Translations under genes and position numbers: made by a program
Assembly: GCA_003134215.1 (NCBI GenBank)
Contig: PLAD01000222.1
Location: forward strand, 2,722 to 36,536
From: Armatimonadota bacterium
GTDB lineage: Bacteria; Armatimonadota; Armatimonadia; Armatimonadales; Capsulimonadaceae
Reading direction: 5' to 3'
DNA: 33,815 bases
Notes under the pieces: model-generated
Database searches by the model: none
What the model was told of the DNA's origin: nothing
Seen by the model: only the letters and a program-made list of their open reading frames with translations
Part shown: one piece after another, positions 3,376-8,899 of the stretch
How positions within the stretch are numbered: the stretch's first letter is position 1
How the letters are laid out: the number at the start of each line of letters is the position of its first letter

Positions 3376-3708
3376 TCAGCGCCGTCGTCTTCGAGGTTCC
3401 CTGGGCGCAGCATCAGGTTCAGGCAACTTTACAATTTGTCTGTCCAACAGATGCTGTCGTAATTGATCTGCCGTGAAGGGACATTCGATAAAATCTATCA
3501 TTTGCTCCTTCGAAAGGTTGCCAATTTGCTTTTGCCGCATCGAAAGCATACTGTCGTCGAACTGCTTTTCGCCATGACTAGTCCTAGTTCGCACAGATGA
3601 TTTCTTGCCGTCAAGCCAGTACCAGTACATATTATGATGCGTGGGATCTTCTTCGAAGCCCTTTGCTTGCAAAGCTTTCCTGAATTTGTCCGTGTCGTAT
3701 GTGGCCAT
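3376..3708 (-). CDS. HicA-like small protein (putative mRNA interferase toxin)
   Basis: A 110-residue protein. Residues 8-55 follow the HicA double-stranded-RNA-binding-like layout: an N-terminal helix ending in KGF, then T23-H24-H25 where classical HicA has the GSHH catalytic His, a strand segment MYWYWLDGKKSSVRTRT, then S44-H45-G. HicA toxins cleave mRNA and are neutralised by HicB. The protein is longer than classical HicA (about 60 residues), with an extra helical part containing IECPF and an Arg-rich tail. The ATG overlaps the stop of the upstream 356-residue gene by one base (TAATG), so the two are translationally coupled. Similar small proteins with THH...SHG...DD are widespread from memory, often labelled HicA-like; toxicity here is inference. 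Confidence 0.6.
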   Translation of the reverse strand: MATYDTDKFRKALQAKGFEEDPTHHNMYWYWLDGKKSSVRTRTSHGEKQFDDSMLSMRQKQIGNLSKEQMIDFIECPFTADQLRQHLLDRQIVKLPEPDAAPREPRRRRR

Positions 3709-4778
3709 TAGGCGATTTCCTCCACGGCGTCAACATCGTCGTCAATCAGATCCCTAAGGTCAATAGCGTCCTCAGTCAAGTTTTTATCCAACTCGCCAAT
3801 CAGTCCGTCGTAGAGAAAGGCAAATTCCTCATGGAGTTGATACACGGCTTGTTGACGATCTGAAGAAAAGGCGACAATACCGTATTTTGGACATTCGTAG
3901 ACCCAAAGCTCATTTCGATACGCCGGGAAACAACTGACCGGGGCAACTAGCTTAAAACGCCGCTTTTGCCACATGAACGAACCAATATTGAATGGAGAAA
4001 GATCAACTGTTGAAACATCGTATACATCGTCAACCTGCCGTACTGACCCATCGTAATTGAGTTGAACGCTCCCTATGACCTCTACGACTGAACCAGCAAC
4101 CAATTGCGATATCTGTTCTTCCATGTCCGAAGGATACAGACATAGTATTTCCCGAAAGGCATGTCTGACGACAATATGCCGTGAACCAGCCTTTACACGG
4201 ATTTCTACTAAATCACCTACAATTCGTTGAACGTCAGCTTCAGATGAAGAAGATGATAACTCAAAATAATTGCTGATCTGGTGCCTAGTCAGCGGAGTAA
4301 GCACTGCCTTGAAGACACCGGTACCGTTGCCAATAAAGACCGACAAACCTTCATCGTCTCGTGGACACATCTGCTGAAGAGACTTGAGGGTTCTTGCTCT
4401 TCCAACGGAATCTGGCATGAGACGTATAAGCTCATTGTCATTCTTGTTATTAATCGCAGACACTACATTCGGTAAGTCTTGGATGGCCTCAACCCCTAAA
4501 TCGGGCATTCCCGGAAGAACAGGATTGCTGCCAAGTTCCGAAGTTAGCGTAAGGCTTCCGGCTTCCGTCTTGGATAGAAACAGTTCGCACGATGCCCGAA
4601 TATAGCTTGGCCATGTTCCACGTGAAGCCACGCCACTCGTACTCTTCGATAGCGCAAGATTGTATAGCGTGGTCTGGGCAGCACCAAGCTTCGAAGCTAG
4701 GGCAGCGAACGAAATGCGCCCTTCGCTAACGGCTTCACCATCTAATTTAATTGTAAGCGTACGCTCGGTAGTTGCCAT
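3708..4778 (-). CDS. Hypothetical protein with possible C-terminal HicB-like domain; partner of the HicA-like gene
   Basis: A 356-residue soluble protein; I do not recognise a full-length family. The N-terminus begins with a short strand (LTIKLDGEAV) followed by a helix. A Ser-rich linker lies near residue 195. The C-terminal part, roughly 289-345, reads VYECPKYGIVAFSSDRQQAV followed by a helix and a Leu/Asp-rich helix; this strand-turn-strand-helix pattern resembles the partial RNase-H fold of HicB antitoxins. It is encoded first and overlaps the HicA-like gene by one base. In type II modules the first, larger, acidic protein is usually the antitoxin. If so, this one is more than twice the size of ordinary HicB. 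A C-terminal Asp/Glu-rich tail adds to the acidic character. Function inferred from context only. Confidence 0.55.
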   Translation of the reverse strand: MATTERTLTIKLDGEAVSEGRISFAALASKLGAAQTTLYNLALSKSTSGVASRGTWPSYIRASCELFLSKTEAGSLTLTSELGSNPVLPGMPDLGVEAIQDLPNVVSAINNKNDNELIRLMPDSVGRARTLKSLQQMCPRDDEGLSVFIGNGTGVFKAVLTPLTRHQISNYFELSSSSSEADVQRIVGDLVEIRVKAGSRHIVVRHAFREILCLYPSDMEEQISQLVAGSVVEVIGSVQLNYDGSVRQVDDVYDVSTVDLSPFNIGSFMWQKRRFKLVAPVSCFPAYRNELWVYECPKYGIVAFSSDRQQAVYQLHEEFAFLYDGLIGELDKNLTEDAIDLRDLIDDDVDAVEEIA

Positions 4779-4867: not shown

Positions 4868-4882
4868 CCTTCTGAACGAAGG
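4868..4882. promoter_or_regulatory. Short inverted repeat upstream of the HicB-like gene
   Basis: CCTTC-TGAAC-GAAGG lies about 90 bases before the start codon at 4778. On the minus strand it sits between a TTGCAC and a TACAAT, but those two are 20 bases apart, longer than ideal for a promoter. It could be an autoregulatory operator of the two-gene module. No protein-binding consensus is known for this family, so this is a suggestion. Confidence 0.35.
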
Positions 4883-4946
4883 CTTAGTGCAAGATTTTGA
4901 TAGCCACACCTTATATTCCACGATTGGAGGGCTAGCGCTAGTCAAT

Positions 4947-4965
4947 AATCCCGTTCGGGAATATT
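4947..4965. promoter_or_regulatory. HipB operator-like site O3
   Basis: AATCCCGTTCGGGAATATT, the most symmetric of three related sites upstream of hipB (TCCCG-TT-CGGGA core). HipB-type antitoxins bind such short palindromes to repress their own operon. It lies 110 bases before the hipB start and could also influence the divergent HicB-like gene. Confidence 0.7.
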
Positions 4966-4996
4966 TTTTGAAGTCGCACATCCTTCATCATAAAAT

Positions 4997-5015
4997 AATC
5001 CCTGACGGTAATATT
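4997..5015. promoter_or_regulatory. HipB operator-like site O2
   Basis: AATCCCTGACGGTAATATT shares the TCCC-n4-GG-n-A layout and the AATATT tail with O3 and O1, but its palindrome is weaker. It lies 50 bases downstream of O3, roughly five helical turns. Confidence 0.65.
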
Positions 5016-5036
5016 TAGTTGGTTTTGCCTCTTGAC

Positions 5037-5045
5037 TGGTATAAT
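5037..5045 (+). promoter_or_regulatory. hipBA promoter, extended -10
   Basis: TGGTATAAT (TGn-TATAAT) lies about 30 bases before the hipB ATG. No well-placed -35 element is visible, which suits an extended -10 promoter. The O1 operator starts at the very next base, so a bound HipB would block polymerase. Confidence 0.6.
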
Positions 5046-5064
5046 ATTCCCGTTCGGTAAACAT
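5046..5064. promoter_or_regulatory. HipB operator-like site O1
   Basis: ATTCCCGTTCGGTAAACAT has the same CCCGTTCGG core as O3. It directly abuts the extended -10 element and ends 11 bases before the hipB ATG, the expected place for repression. Confidence 0.7.
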
Positions 5065-5075
5065 TTAACATTACC

Positions 5076-5315
5076 ATGAAATACACTCCCGCACAACTAG
5101 GCAAACTGATACGATCTACCCGCAAGTCGCTCCGAGTGACGCAGGAGCAACTCGCCATGACTGCCGGAACGGGCTTGCGATTCATAATCGACCTCGAAAA
5201 AGGGAAGCCGACGTGCGAAATTGGCAAGGCGCTCACCGTGCTGCAAACCCTCGGTATTGATATGACGTTGGTGCCGCCAAAGAATAGCGTCGAAGGTGAA
5301 GCGGAGGCGCAGTGA
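5076..5315 (+). CDS. hipB: HipB-like antitoxin, HTH (Xre-type) transcriptional regulator
   Basis: A 79-residue protein, normal for HipB. Residues 7-62 form an Xre-type helix-turn-helix: LGKLIRSTRKSLRVTQEQLA then a recognition helix beginning around GLRFIIDLEKGKPT. HipB binds and neutralises the HipA kinase and represses the operon. Three operator-like palindromes lie just upstream. The stop TGA overlaps the start of hipA, so the pair is translationally coupled. The C-terminal tail (VEGEAEAQ) is acidic, as in many HipB proteins. The ATG at 5076 is well placed after the O1 operator. Confidence 0.9.
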   Translation: MKYTPAQLGKLIRSTRKSLRVTQEQLAMTAGTGLRFIIDLEKGKPTCEIGKALTVLQTLGIDMTLVPPKNSVEGEAEAQ

Positions 5316-6559
5316 TGGCTCGAACCCTCGATGTATACCTCCACCATAACCTCGTCGGGCACCTTATCCAGGATGACCACGGCGACATGGTGTTCGATTA
5401 CGCTGAAAGTTGGCTGAGCCGACCGAACGTCATCGCCCTTTCTAACTCACTGCCGCTTCGTGCCGAGCGCTTCGGTCGCAACGAATGCCGTGGCTATTTT
5501 GGCGGTATCCTGCCGGAATCGGATAAGAGGGATATCATCGCCAGAAACCTAGGCATAAGCTCTAAGAACGATTTCGCAATGCTGGAGCGCATCGGCGGCG
5601 AATGCGCCGGTGCGGTGACATTCGTTGCCCCAGGCGAGGATCTGCCTGAGGACCAAGACCGTTACCGCATACTAAGTGGTTCTGAATTGGCGGATATCCT
5701 TCGCTCACTGCCTCGCCGACCGCTCATGGCCGGAGCCGACGATGTTCGCCTTTCGCTGGCAGGTGCGCAGGACAAGATTGCAGTCCGTATCGTCGGCGAC
5801 GAAATATCGATTCCCCTCGGCGGAGCGCCAAGCACCCACATTCTGAAGCCAGCCATCGAGCGGTTTCAAAGTGTCGTTTTCAACGAATCGTTCTGCATGA
5901 CCCTTGCCCAACGAATCGGGCTGCCGGTCGCCCATGTGGAAACAGGCAAGGTTGAGGATATCGATTATCTCGCCGTTAAGCGTTACGACAGGAACTTCAC
6001 GGATGCGGGGACATTGGAGCGGCTTCACCAAGAGGACTTTTGCCAGGCACTCGGGATTGCCTCCGAACAGAAATATCAGAACGAGGGTGGTCCCTCACTT
6101 CAGCAATCCTTCGAACTGGTCCGTGAAACGTCGGCACTGCCTGTCATCGACCTAACGACTTTGCTCGATGGCGTTCTCTTCAACTTCCTAATTGGCAACA
6201 ACGACGCCCATGGCAAGAACTTTTCGCTTCTTCGCACGATTGTAAGCGGGAAGGCCACGATTCGCCTCGCCCCGTTCTATGACCTTCTGAGCACCGCCTT
6301 TTATCCCGAGCTATCAACGAAGATGGCGATGAAGTTCGGCGGCGAGTACGACTCTGAGAAAGTCGTAGCAAAACACTTCGACAGATTCGCCCAAGATGCA
6401 AATCTTGGCAAGGCGATGGTAAAGCGGCGAGTGAAGGAAGAAGTGGAGGCGGTGATATCAACGCTGGCGACGATGCCGGTGGATAGGCAGGTCGCCGATG
6501 ACATCGCCTCGCTCATCCGGCGGCGTTGCGAGAAGACGTTGGTGCGGCTCGGAGATTGA
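5312..6559 (+). CDS. hipA: HipA-like serine/threonine kinase toxin
   Basis: A 415-residue HipA-family kinase. HipA phosphorylates glutamyl-tRNA synthetase in E. coli, halting translation and promoting persistence; the target here is not known. The sequence has an N-terminal subdomain (about 1-110); the autophosphorylation segment RLSLAGAQDK with Ser148; ATP-binding Lys179 in HILKP; the catalytic loop NNDAHGKN with Asp298; and the metal-binding Asp324 in APFYDLLS. All expected catalytic residues are intact. The start is either GTG 5312 or ATG 5315; the ATG (TGATG overlap with hipB) is more likely, giving 414 residues and moving each position down by one. The gene ends convergently 84 bases from the HATPase-type pseudogene. 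Confidence 0.93.
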   Translation: MMARTLDVYLHHNLVGHLIQDDHGDMVFDYAESWLSRPNVIALSNSLPLRAERFGRNECRGYFGGILPESDKRDIIARNLGISSKNDFAMLERIGGECAGAVTFVAPGEDLPEDQDRYRILSGSELADILRSLPRRPLMAGADDVRLSLAGAQDKIAVRIVGDEISIPLGGAPSTHILKPAIERFQSVVFNESFCMTLAQRIGLPVAHVETGKVEDIDYLAVKRYDRNFTDAGTLERLHQEDFCQALGIASEQKYQNEGGPSLQQSFELVRETSALPVIDLTTLLDGVLFNFLIGNNDAHGKNFSLLRTIVSGKATIRLAPFYDLLSTAFYPELSTKMAMKFGGEYDSEKVVAKHFDRFAQDANLGKAMVKRRVKEEVEAVISTLATMPVDRQVADDIASLIRRRCEKTLVRLGD

Positions 6560-6643: not shown

Positions 6644-7590
6644 CTAACGCTGGCGCAGCGTATACACCGCCACCTTAACCCCCGTCCCGCTGATACCATA
6701 AACCGGCTCCGGCAATCCATGCCTACGCATCTCTTCGAACATGCGCCGGATGCCGCCAGTGGATTCCCGAACATATCCAGTCATGTCAGCTAATACACGG
6801 GCGATATGCGGGTTACGGGAATACCGAGCGTTTTGTATGTTCTGAACACGAACCAGCCCCGGTAGCCGACCAAGGCTTTCGACTTCCAGGCGATCCTCGA
6901 AAAGCGTCACCCGAATGCCGTCGCCCTGTAAACTGTAAGAACGGTGCGTCACTGCATTGACGATAGCTTCAAACCAGGCAAACTCGGGGAGAAGCGGGAT
7001 TCGTTCGAAACGACCACCCGGTACTTGGCGAATGACGGAGCCAAGCTTTTCCGCAACTAGTTCCCTTGTGGCGTCAATGATCTGCGGTATAGTTCCTTCG
7101 ATGCGGATGTCTTCAGACAGGTTCGACTGTGTTCCTGTTTCTACGGTCATTCCTCGGTACTGAAGGAAGCGCACATATGACCACACCGGCGTCGTGCGTC
7201 CAAAGAGCAGCCGTCCGGCTTGCGTAACGCCTGTTCGATTGCCGGTGCCGAGGTAAAGTCCACGGCTCCTCAGAAGTGCAGCGGTATCAGTAGCACCGAC
7301 CTTGTGCTTGTAAGCAGCGATAGCTTCGTCATTGAGGTCTTCCAGCGTCAGGTCGTGCACAATCGTTCCATCGCAAATTGACTCGCCCTTGTCGAACGCA
7401 AGGTCCCGCTCTTCGGTCGGCCCGAGCCGCCGGTTTTCGTCGCCGACACGAAGAAAACATTCGTGCTTCTTGTTGCGGTGGATTGCTCACCGGCCTCTTT
7501 ATCGAGCACGAGGATACGGTCATCCTCTCCTTTGTCATTCGTGCAATCGATATAAGCAACTGCATGACTAACGAAGCGTAGAATCGGTAG
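6644..7590 (-). pseudogene. AlbA_2/HATPase_c_4 ATP-binding regulator (COG2865-like), truncated and frameshifted
   Basis: The main frame (stop at 6644, GTG at 7360 a possible internal start) encodes the C-terminal half of a predicted DNA-binding regulator with a GHKL-type ATPase domain: FEAIVNAVTHRSY, DRLEVESLGRLPG and RNPHIARVL are typical of HATPase_c_4. The same frame stays open upstream to about 7485 and reads HECFLRVGDENRRLG, the end of an AlbA_2 (Schlafen-like) domain. A different frame then continues with AVAYIDCTNDKGEDDRILVL to 7590. So at least one frameshift lies near 7478-7490 and the N-terminal two-thirds of AlbA_2 is missing. It is probably a decayed remnant; a short protein from GTG 7360 (238 residues) could still be made. 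Confidence 0.75.
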
Positions 7591-7768: not shown

Positions 7769-7840
7769 GCGGGAGTAGCTCAGTGGTAGAGCACCTGCTT
7801 CCCAAGCAGGGTGTCGCGGGTTCGATCCCCGTCTCCCGCT
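7769..7840 (+). tRNA. tRNA-Gly (anticodon CCC)
   Basis: A 72-base cloverleaf. Acceptor strands GCGGGAG and CTCCCGC pair fully, with discriminator T at 7840 as usual for bacterial glycine tRNAs. The anticodon arm is CCTGC-TTCCCAA-GCAGG, giving anticodon CCC for codon GGG. The T arm is GCGGG-TTCGATC-CCCGT. The 3' CCA is not encoded. Its first 40 bases are repeated in the truncated copy at 1998-2037. Confidence 0.95.
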
Positions 7841-8240: not shown

Positions 8241-8654
8241 TTAAGTGTTCAATACATCGATCTTCTCTGTTCTTGCTGCGGAAATCAGTTCGGCGTCTAG
8301 TGTCGCAAGAGGAAGCGCACGACGAATTGCAAGCTCAAGATAGGCTGCGTCATAGAGGGTCAAACGATGTCGCTCTGCTAGGTCTAAGGTTTCCGTCCAC
8401 GCATGCACATTTGTTTCAGTGTCGATAGATATCGGCAATGACAAGAGATCGGCTAATGTTGCGTCCCGAAAGGCCGCGTCGGTTCTGGCGCGCCGCACTC
8501 CCATTTCGAGAACGTTTGCAACCTCAAGACGCCATAGTCCAGGGACCCATGCGCCCTCTGCTAGCACCTTCTCAAAAACCAAACGGGTACCTGATGTGTT
8601 CTCGTTATTATAGGCCCAAGCTAACGCAATCGAAGCATCAAGGACCAAGCTCAC
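8241..8654 (-). CDS. vapC: VapC-like PIN-domain ribonuclease toxin
   Basis: A 137-residue PIN-domain protein of normal length. The four acidic residues expected in the Mg2+-dependent RNase site are visible: Asp6 in VLDASI, Glu44 in WRLEVANVL, Asp102 in LYDAAYLELA and Asp120 in LATLDAEL. VapC toxins cleave tRNA or rRNA; the target here is unknown. The GTG start overlaps the antitoxin stop by four bases (GTGA), giving coupled translation. It ends 12 bases from the PIN stub on the other strand, so the two modules are back to back. Confidence 0.9.
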   Translation of the reverse strand: MSLVLDASIALAWAYNNENTSGTRLVFEKVLAEGAWVPGLWRLEVANVLEMGVRRARTDAAFRDATLADLLSLPISIDTETNVHAWTETLDLAERHRLTLYDAAYLELAIRRALPLATLDAELISAARTEKIDVLNT

Positions 8655-8899
8655 GGACGACCTTTGTCTCTCTCCGTCTTCAATTCGCTCCAGTTGAAAT
8701 CAACCTTGTTACGCGCCGCCCTTTCTTCAAGTCGCTGTGCCGCAGCGCGCGCCTGCGCACGATCGTTGCCTTCGACATTTGGAACAAGGCGGGCAACTGG
8801 CCGTCCATGGCGTGTGATTATGATTTCCTCTCCTTGTTCGACACGGCTGAGCAGAGATCCCAATGTGTTCTTTGCCTCAAAGGCTCCAATTTCGTGCAC
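8651..8899 (-). CDS. vapB: VapB-type antitoxin, Phd/YefM family
   Basis: An 82-residue protein whose N-terminal half is a Phd/YefM DNA-binding fold: EIGAFEAKNTLGSLLSRVEQ, then GEEIIITRHGRPVARLVP. The C-terminal half is a charged helix that would wrap around VapC. Such antitoxins bind a palindrome in their own promoter and neutralise the toxin. The start is GTG at 8899, preceded by GAGGT at the right distance. A perfect 18-base palindrome lies 17 bases upstream. It is the first gene of the vapBC operon. Confidence 0.9.
   Translation of the reverse strand: MHEIGAFEAKNTLGSLLSRVEQGEEIIITRHGRPVARLVPNVEGNDRAQARAAAQRLEERAARNKVDFNWSELKTERDKGRP

What the first reader, a model, noticed from the sequence alone, without database searches (positions are those of the whole stretch)
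4947..5064. Three HipB operators spaced at about 50 bases, next to an extended -10 promoter
Sites at 4947, 4997 and 5046 share a TCCC-n4-GG core and AAT-rich edges, each about five helical turns from the next. The nearest abuts TGGTATAAT. The furthest lies toward the divergent HicB-like gene, so HipB might also control that module.
Basis: partly seen in the sequence, partly recalled or inferred. Interest (0 to 1): 0.55.

Follow-up and report, generated by a model that had tools for sequence, protein, structure and literature searches.

The report
Fixed-pitch HipB operator array at hipBA
Upstream of a hipBA toxin-antitoxin operon lie three copies of the likely binding site of its own repressor, one every 49-50 DNA letters, and the same ruler-like layout recurs at related operons across several bacterial phyla, suggesting that the repressor-toxin complex grips the promoter DNA at a fixed geometry.

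Summary
The three sites are real: palindromes at 4944-4966, 4994-5016 and 5043-5065 (pitch 50 and 49 bp), far beyond chance. They belong to the hipBA operon at 5076-6559. Relatives keep them: about 80 hipBA loci (HipA 46-65% identical) from Acidobacteriota, Verrucomicrobiota, Bacteroidota, Armatimonadota and Proteobacteria show TTCCCG-nn-CGGGAA sites 49 or 50 bp apart, and 66 have all three. The promoter sits between the two nearer sites. The distal site is kept whether the upstream neighbour is codirectional (33) or divergent (24), and this window's divergent gene is at no relative's hipBA, so control of that gene is not supported. Two further results. Pitch is a property of the HipA lineage: E. 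coli's clade uses 28 bp, this one 49-50, even where the operator sequence differs. And the spacers carry A/T-rich steps every 10.2 bp, symmetric about the spacer midpoint, absent outside the array and replicated. Best reading: HipB-HipA complexes bind the three operators cooperatively on one face of curved DNA and enclose the promoter. HipB operator arrays are known; this pitch class and the shaped spacers look new.

The parts
4944..4966 (.). Distal operator O3, AATAATCCCGTTCGGGAATATTT (core 4948-4961)
   Evidence: conserved in 66 relatives
4967..4993 (.). O3-O2 spacer, no conserved sequence in relatives except A/T peaks every ~10.2 bp; here it holds a weak promoter-like TTGAAG-17-TAAAAT (4968-4996)
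4994..5016 (.). Middle operator O2, AATAATCCCTGACGGTAATATTT (core 4998-5011)
5019..5024 (+). -35-like TTGGTT, at the position where about three quarters of non-redundant relatives have the first T of a TTG
   Evidence: Read; conservation
5037..5045 (+). Extended -10 TGGTATAAT of the hipBA promoter, running into O1
   Evidence: Read; A/T-rich -10 position conserved just before O1
5043..5065 (.). Proximal operator O1, AATATTCCCGTTCGGTAAACATT (core 5047-5060), covering the expected transcription start
5076..5315 (+). hipB, 79 aa, Y4mF-family HTH antitoxin
   Evidence: TIGR03070 71.9 bits, cut-off 71.65; HTH_19
5312..6559 (+). hipA, 415 aa, HipA kinase toxin
   Evidence: HipA_C and Couple_hipA; aligned to E. 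coli HipA 2wiu; SLAGAQDK, GNNDAHGKN and PFYDLLS motifs read from the translation

Best explanation
The three palindromes are the autoregulatory operators of this hipBA module. A HipB dimer carrying HipA on its flanks binds each one. The fixed 49-50 bp pitch lets neighbouring complexes touch through HipA at the middle of each spacer, so the three sites fill cooperatively. The spacer DNA is curved, with A/T-rich minor grooves facing inward every ~10.2 bp, so that all three HipB dimers sit on the inner face of one arc of about 120 bp. The promoter lies in the O2-O1 spacer (-35 just after O2, -10 running into O1), so it is both bracketed and bent when the array is filled, and transcription stops; loss of HipB opens it. 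O3 adds cooperativity and more places to hold HipA inactive. Shown here: the sites, their pitch, their conservation, the promoter position, the phased A/T. Inferred: HipB binding, HipA bridging, curvature and repression.
For: Sites and chance. About 80 relatives: 139 of 159 adjacent-site spacings are 49 or 50, 7 more are 48 or 51; 66 loci with full triples, 52 non-redundant. The O3-O2 spacer has no conserved bases, so the distance itself is what is kept. -35/-10 located between O2 and O1 in relatives. A/T periodicity in both spacers, z about 10, none comparable beyond O3 or O1; period 10.2, peaks at +-5 and +-15 from the midpoint; survives strict de-duplication and recurs in a separately drawn set (n=23, z 8.8) and in loci with other operator sequences (n=9, z 5.5). 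Pitch follows the HipA tree (13 changes, shuffled mean 40.5, none of 200 as low). Precedents: E. coli HipB binds four operators with HipA as co-repressor and bends DNA 70 degrees (PMC3920265); HipA dimerizes in the HipA/HipB/operator complex (PMC7029023); Legionella HipB binds three evenly spaced operators in EMSA (PMC10653801).
Against: No binding, footprint or expression data for this clade. HipA bridging was described for E. coli, whose pitch is 28/39/28 bp; at 49.5 bp the contact would have to differ. About 13 of the relatives show only two sites at the threshold used, so O3 is not indispensable. Phased A/T may raise flexibility rather than fixed curvature. Relatives are not fully independent, and many are metagenome bins.
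Confidence: 0.72

Rival explanations
1. A plain operator array without bridging: each HipB dimer binds on its own, O1 blocks the -10, O2 blocks the -35, and the ~50-bp pitch between O2 and O1 simply reflects the length of a promoter. O3 is a spare copy left by tandem duplication of a promoter-operator unit.
For: Promoter fits exactly between O2 and O1; this window has a weak promoter-like sequence in the O3-O2 spacer in the same register; Legionella HipB gives stepwise shifts (PMC10653801).
Against: The O3-O2 spacer carries no conserved promoter or other sequence in relatives yet keeps 49-50 bp and the same A/T phasing; drifting spacing would be expected of a spare copy. Other HipA clades hold other fixed pitches.
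Confidence: 0.2
2. One reading: O3 lies toward the divergent gene and lets HipB control that gene pair as well.
For: O3 is the site nearest to the divergent start (4778) and the gap of about 165 bp could hold a promoter.
Against: O3 kept with 33 codirectional and 24 divergent neighbours; no homologue of the 356-aa divergent protein at any relative's hipBA; no promoter match on the minus strand at 4868-4930.
Confidence: 0.06
3. The phased A/T steps reflect an architectural host protein (IHF-, HU- or Fis-like) or general promoter composition, not HipB-HipA geometry.
For: An IHF site upstream of E. coli hipBA has been mentioned (PMC3376134); A/T-rich DNA is common near promoters.
Against: Phasing is symmetric about each spacer midpoint, present equally in the non-promoter spacer, absent just outside the array, and shared across phyla and operator motifs.
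Confidence: 0.1

Closest known systems
E. coli K-12 hipBA operators O1-O4 (HipB, TATCC-N8-GGATA)
   Same: HTH antitoxin HipB encoded just downstream, palindromic operators in tandem at the promoter, HipA as co-repressor (PMC3920265).
   Different: Four sites at 28, 39 and 28 bp (measured in L096; sites also), other half-site, and one operator lies between -35 and -10; here three sites at 50 and 49 bp with the whole promoter between two operators.
Legionella HipBST operators O1-O3
   Same: Three evenly spaced operators upstream of hipB, bound in EMSA (PMC10653801).
   Different: 53-bp gaps, i.e. 71-72 bp start to start, different motif, split HipS/HipT toxin; here an intact HipA.
Caulobacter hipBA1 and hipBA2 operator sites
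   Same: Three operator sites each, inverted repeats at regular intervals (PMC8545095; PMC7029023).
   Different: Spacing and sequence are given only in supplements that could not be read, so the pitch class is unknown here.
hipBA loci of the same clade, e.g. Legionella erythra L027, Comamonas kerstersii L052, Roseomonas rosea L068
   Same: Same operator consensus, same 49-50 pitch, same promoter position.
   Different: Neighbouring genes differ.

Membership tests
Type II hipBA toxin-antitoxin module | HTH antitoxin gene directly upstream of, and overlapping, a HipA kinase gene | tested here: met
   TIGR03070 (just over cut-off), Couple_hipA and HipA_C; 4-bp overlap at 5312-5315
Type II hipBA toxin-antitoxin module | HipA kinase motifs intact | tested here: met
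   SLAGAQDK, GNNDAHGKN, PFYDLLS align to E. coli HipA
Type II hipBA toxin-antitoxin module | HipA toxic, HipB neutralizes it | not testable with these tools
   Needs expression
HipB autoregulatory operator array | Several copies of one palindrome at the hipBA promoter | tested here: met
HipB autoregulatory operator array | Conserved with hipBA across genomes | tested here: met
HipB autoregulatory operator array | HipB binds the sites and represses | not testable with these tools
   Inferred from homologues (PMC10653801, PMC3376134)
E. coli-type hipBA operators | TATCC-N8-GGATA and 28-bp pitch class | tested here: not met
   Window TCCC-N4-GG at 50/49 bp; E. coli 28/39/28 and in another HipA clade
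HipBST | Toxin split into HipS and HipT | tested here: not met
   Single 415-aa HipA with both domains
HicAB (divergent pair) | Match to HicA or HicB family models | tested here: not met
   No Pfam, NCBIfam or PADLOC HicA/HicB match for 3379-3708 or 3711-4778; a remote relative is not excluded

The most novel reading that the evidence does not exclude
HipB-HipA complexes build lineage-specific nucleoprotein scaffolds: each HipA clade has its own exact operator pitch (about 28, 31, 41, 47, 49.5 or 71 bp), set by the HipA-HipA contact and not by the operator sequence, and in the 49-50 bp class the DNA is wrapped, nucleosome-like, on the complex through A/T steps phased at 10.2 bp. This would make the promoter itself a store that holds the toxin inactive.
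Probability: 0.4. Interest if true: 0.75.

Novelty: new variant of a known kind. Interest (0 to 1): 0.55.

Why it matters
HipA is the founding persistence toxin, and why hipBA promoters carry several operators and large HipB-HipA-DNA assemblies is only known in detail for E. coli. A pitch held to within one base pair across phyla while operator sequences change, with spacer DNA shaped to match, predicts a specific and different assembly that can be tested with simple 5- and 10-bp insertions. It also gives a sequence-only way to sort HipBA systems by assembly type.

Tried and rejected
A universal helical phase for all HipB arrays: 28, 39, 49.5 and 71 bp all give about n+0.7 turns at 10.5 bp, but wider sampling found 30-31 and 41 bp (n+0.9) and 47 bp (n+0.5), so no single phase holds. 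HipB regulon beyond hipBA: no further site with 2 or fewer mismatches in the assembly, which is 88% complete. Control of the divergent gene: see rivals. The Schumacher 2015 and Wen 2014 papers are not held, so their details come only through papers that cite them. Some hipB calls in the wide sample were wrong ORFs; 16 failed a HipB profile and were left out of the tree. The HipA tree is a quick one with long branches; the p31 and p41 classes are not single clades in it.

Full report
What was claimed.

Observation. A repeat search finds one family of exactly three 23-nt copies at 4944-4966, 4994-5016 and 5043-5065, spaced 50 and 49 bp. A pattern made from them matches nowhere else in the window with up to three mismatches (0.01 expected), and nowhere else in the host assembly with two or fewer. 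The genes to the right are hipB (5076-5315) and hipA (5312-6559): the first passes the Y4mF/HipB model TIGR03070 just above its cut-off, the second carries both HipA domains and aligns to E. coli HipA including the kinase motifs. There is one hipA like it in the genome, and only five of 100 other genomes searched as relatives have a HipA match, one of them close (64%), so the module is patchily distributed.

Conservation. A scan of one genome per species brought 80 loci with HipA 46-65% identical. Upstream of their hipB genes the same palindrome recurs. With a simple consensus score (TTCCCG-nn-CGGGAA, at least 9 of 12) there are 239 sites against about 11 in shuffles, and adjacent spacings are 49 (67 times) or 50 (72), with four at 48 and three at 51. 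Sixty-six loci have all three sites at 48-51 bp, 52 of them non-redundant. Titles of these records name Acidobacteriota, Verrucomicrobiota, Bacteroidota, Armatimonadota and Alpha-, Beta-, Gamma- and Deltaproteobacteria. Many are metagenome bins, but isolates (Legionella, Comamonas, Roseomonas, Deefgea, Microvirga) show the same. About 13 loci show only two sites at this threshold.

Anatomy. In the non-redundant set the core is TTCCCG-AT-CGGGAA with A/T arms. Outside the operators the only clearly conserved bases are a TTG about 21-23 positions after the start of O2 and an A/T-rich -10 element just before O1, about 17 bp apart, so the promoter lies in the O2-O1 spacer and its -10 runs into O1. 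The window fits: TTGGTT at 5019-5024 and TGGTATAAT at 5037-5045. The O3-O2 spacer has no conserved bases and still keeps its length.

Phased spacer DNA. Both spacers have A/T-rich peaks at about 5 and 15 bp on either side of the midpoint and G/C-rich steps at the midpoint and at 10 bp. With the arms included the period is 10.2-10.3. The amplitude over the interior is 2.0-2.1 against a shuffled mean of 0.32 (maximum 0.92; z about 10), while stretches upstream of O3 and downstream of O1 show no comparable signal (z -1.0 to 2.2). It survives strict removal of similar spacers, and recurs with the same phase in 23 loci of a separately drawn gammaproteobacterial sample (z 8.8), nine of which have other operator sequences (z 5.5). 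A few of the 23 (for instance L100, identical to L027) are also in the first set, so that set is largely, not wholly, independent; the nine with other operator motifs are outside the first set.

Pitch classes. From 274 gammaproteobacterial genomes about 110 further hipA loci were read, and repeated palindromes were sought without a given motif. Best lags cluster at 27-28 (with 54-56), 29-31, 40-41, 47, 49-50 (with 98-101) and 71. Mapped on a HipA tree the classes need 13 changes against 40.5 for shuffled labels (0 of 200 as low). The 28-bp loci fall together with E. coli in one clade (support 100), the window lies among 49-50 bp loci, and a separate 49-50 bp clade has operators of the form AATCCTA-n-TAGGATT. 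So the operator sequence changes while the pitch stays. An initial idea that all pitches share one helical phase did not hold.

The distal site and the divergent gene. Among relatives the gene upstream of the array is codirectional in 33 and divergent in 24 cases within 300 bp (a simple ORF-based call). The 356-aa divergent product of this window has no homologue at any of those loci. The promoter scan finds nothing on the minus strand at 4868-4930. O3 therefore belongs to hipBA; control of the neighbour is possible but has no evidence. The HicB/HicA label is not confirmed.

Mechanism. E. coli HipB represses its operon by binding four operators cooperatively, with HipA as co-repressor and a 70-degree bend per site (PMC3920265); [quoted passage not shown] Legionella HipB binds three evenly spaced operators in vitro (PMC10653801). 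By analogy, and because the distance and not the sequence of the O3-O2 spacer is kept, the most likely mechanism is cooperative filling of three sites by HipB-HipA complexes that touch over the spacer midpoints, on the inner face of curved DNA, with the promoter enclosed. The binding, bridging, curvature and repression steps are inferred.

Known or new. HipB operator arrays as such are known (E. coli four sites; Caulobacter hipBA1/2 three sites, PMC8545095 and PMC7029023; Legionella HipBST three). A search of the held literature for HipB operator spacing found no paper; subscription papers and supplements could not be read. The 49-50 bp class, the link of pitch to HipA lineage and the phased spacers were not found described. 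I rate it a new variant of a known kind.

Noticed in passing
window 8241-8899 (-): A second toxin-antitoxin pair: Phd/YefM antitoxin (8651-8899) followed by a PIN-domain toxin (8241-8654), with overlapping ends.
   Followed up: no
window 7769-7840 (+): tRNA-Gly (ccc), the only tRNA in the window, between the hipBA side and the PIN pair; hipBA and its neighbours might be an island next to it.
   Followed up: no
window 3376-4778 (-): Two overlapping divergent genes, 356 aa and 110 aa, without a database family. The 356-aa protein has a weak plasmid match in Geminocystis (25.6%); the 110-aa protein looks like HicA by eye only.
   Followed up: partly
window 6644-7360 (-): 238-aa ORF with a RecG-C-terminal/ATPase-like domain (PF13749); PADLOC gives a pAgo model at 67 bits. 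Possibly a truncated transcriptional regulator.
   Followed up: no
L082 (genome G080): The nearest relative in the same phylum (HipA 64%) has a TAA stop inside hipA but still keeps three operators at 50 and 50 bp.
   Followed up: no
L014: This locus appears to have a fourth operator, at 49, 49, 49 bp.
   Followed up: no
L154, L125, L128, L141: Arrays with unequal spacings (40 and 71; 40 and 86; 86), which may combine two pitch units.
   Followed up: no
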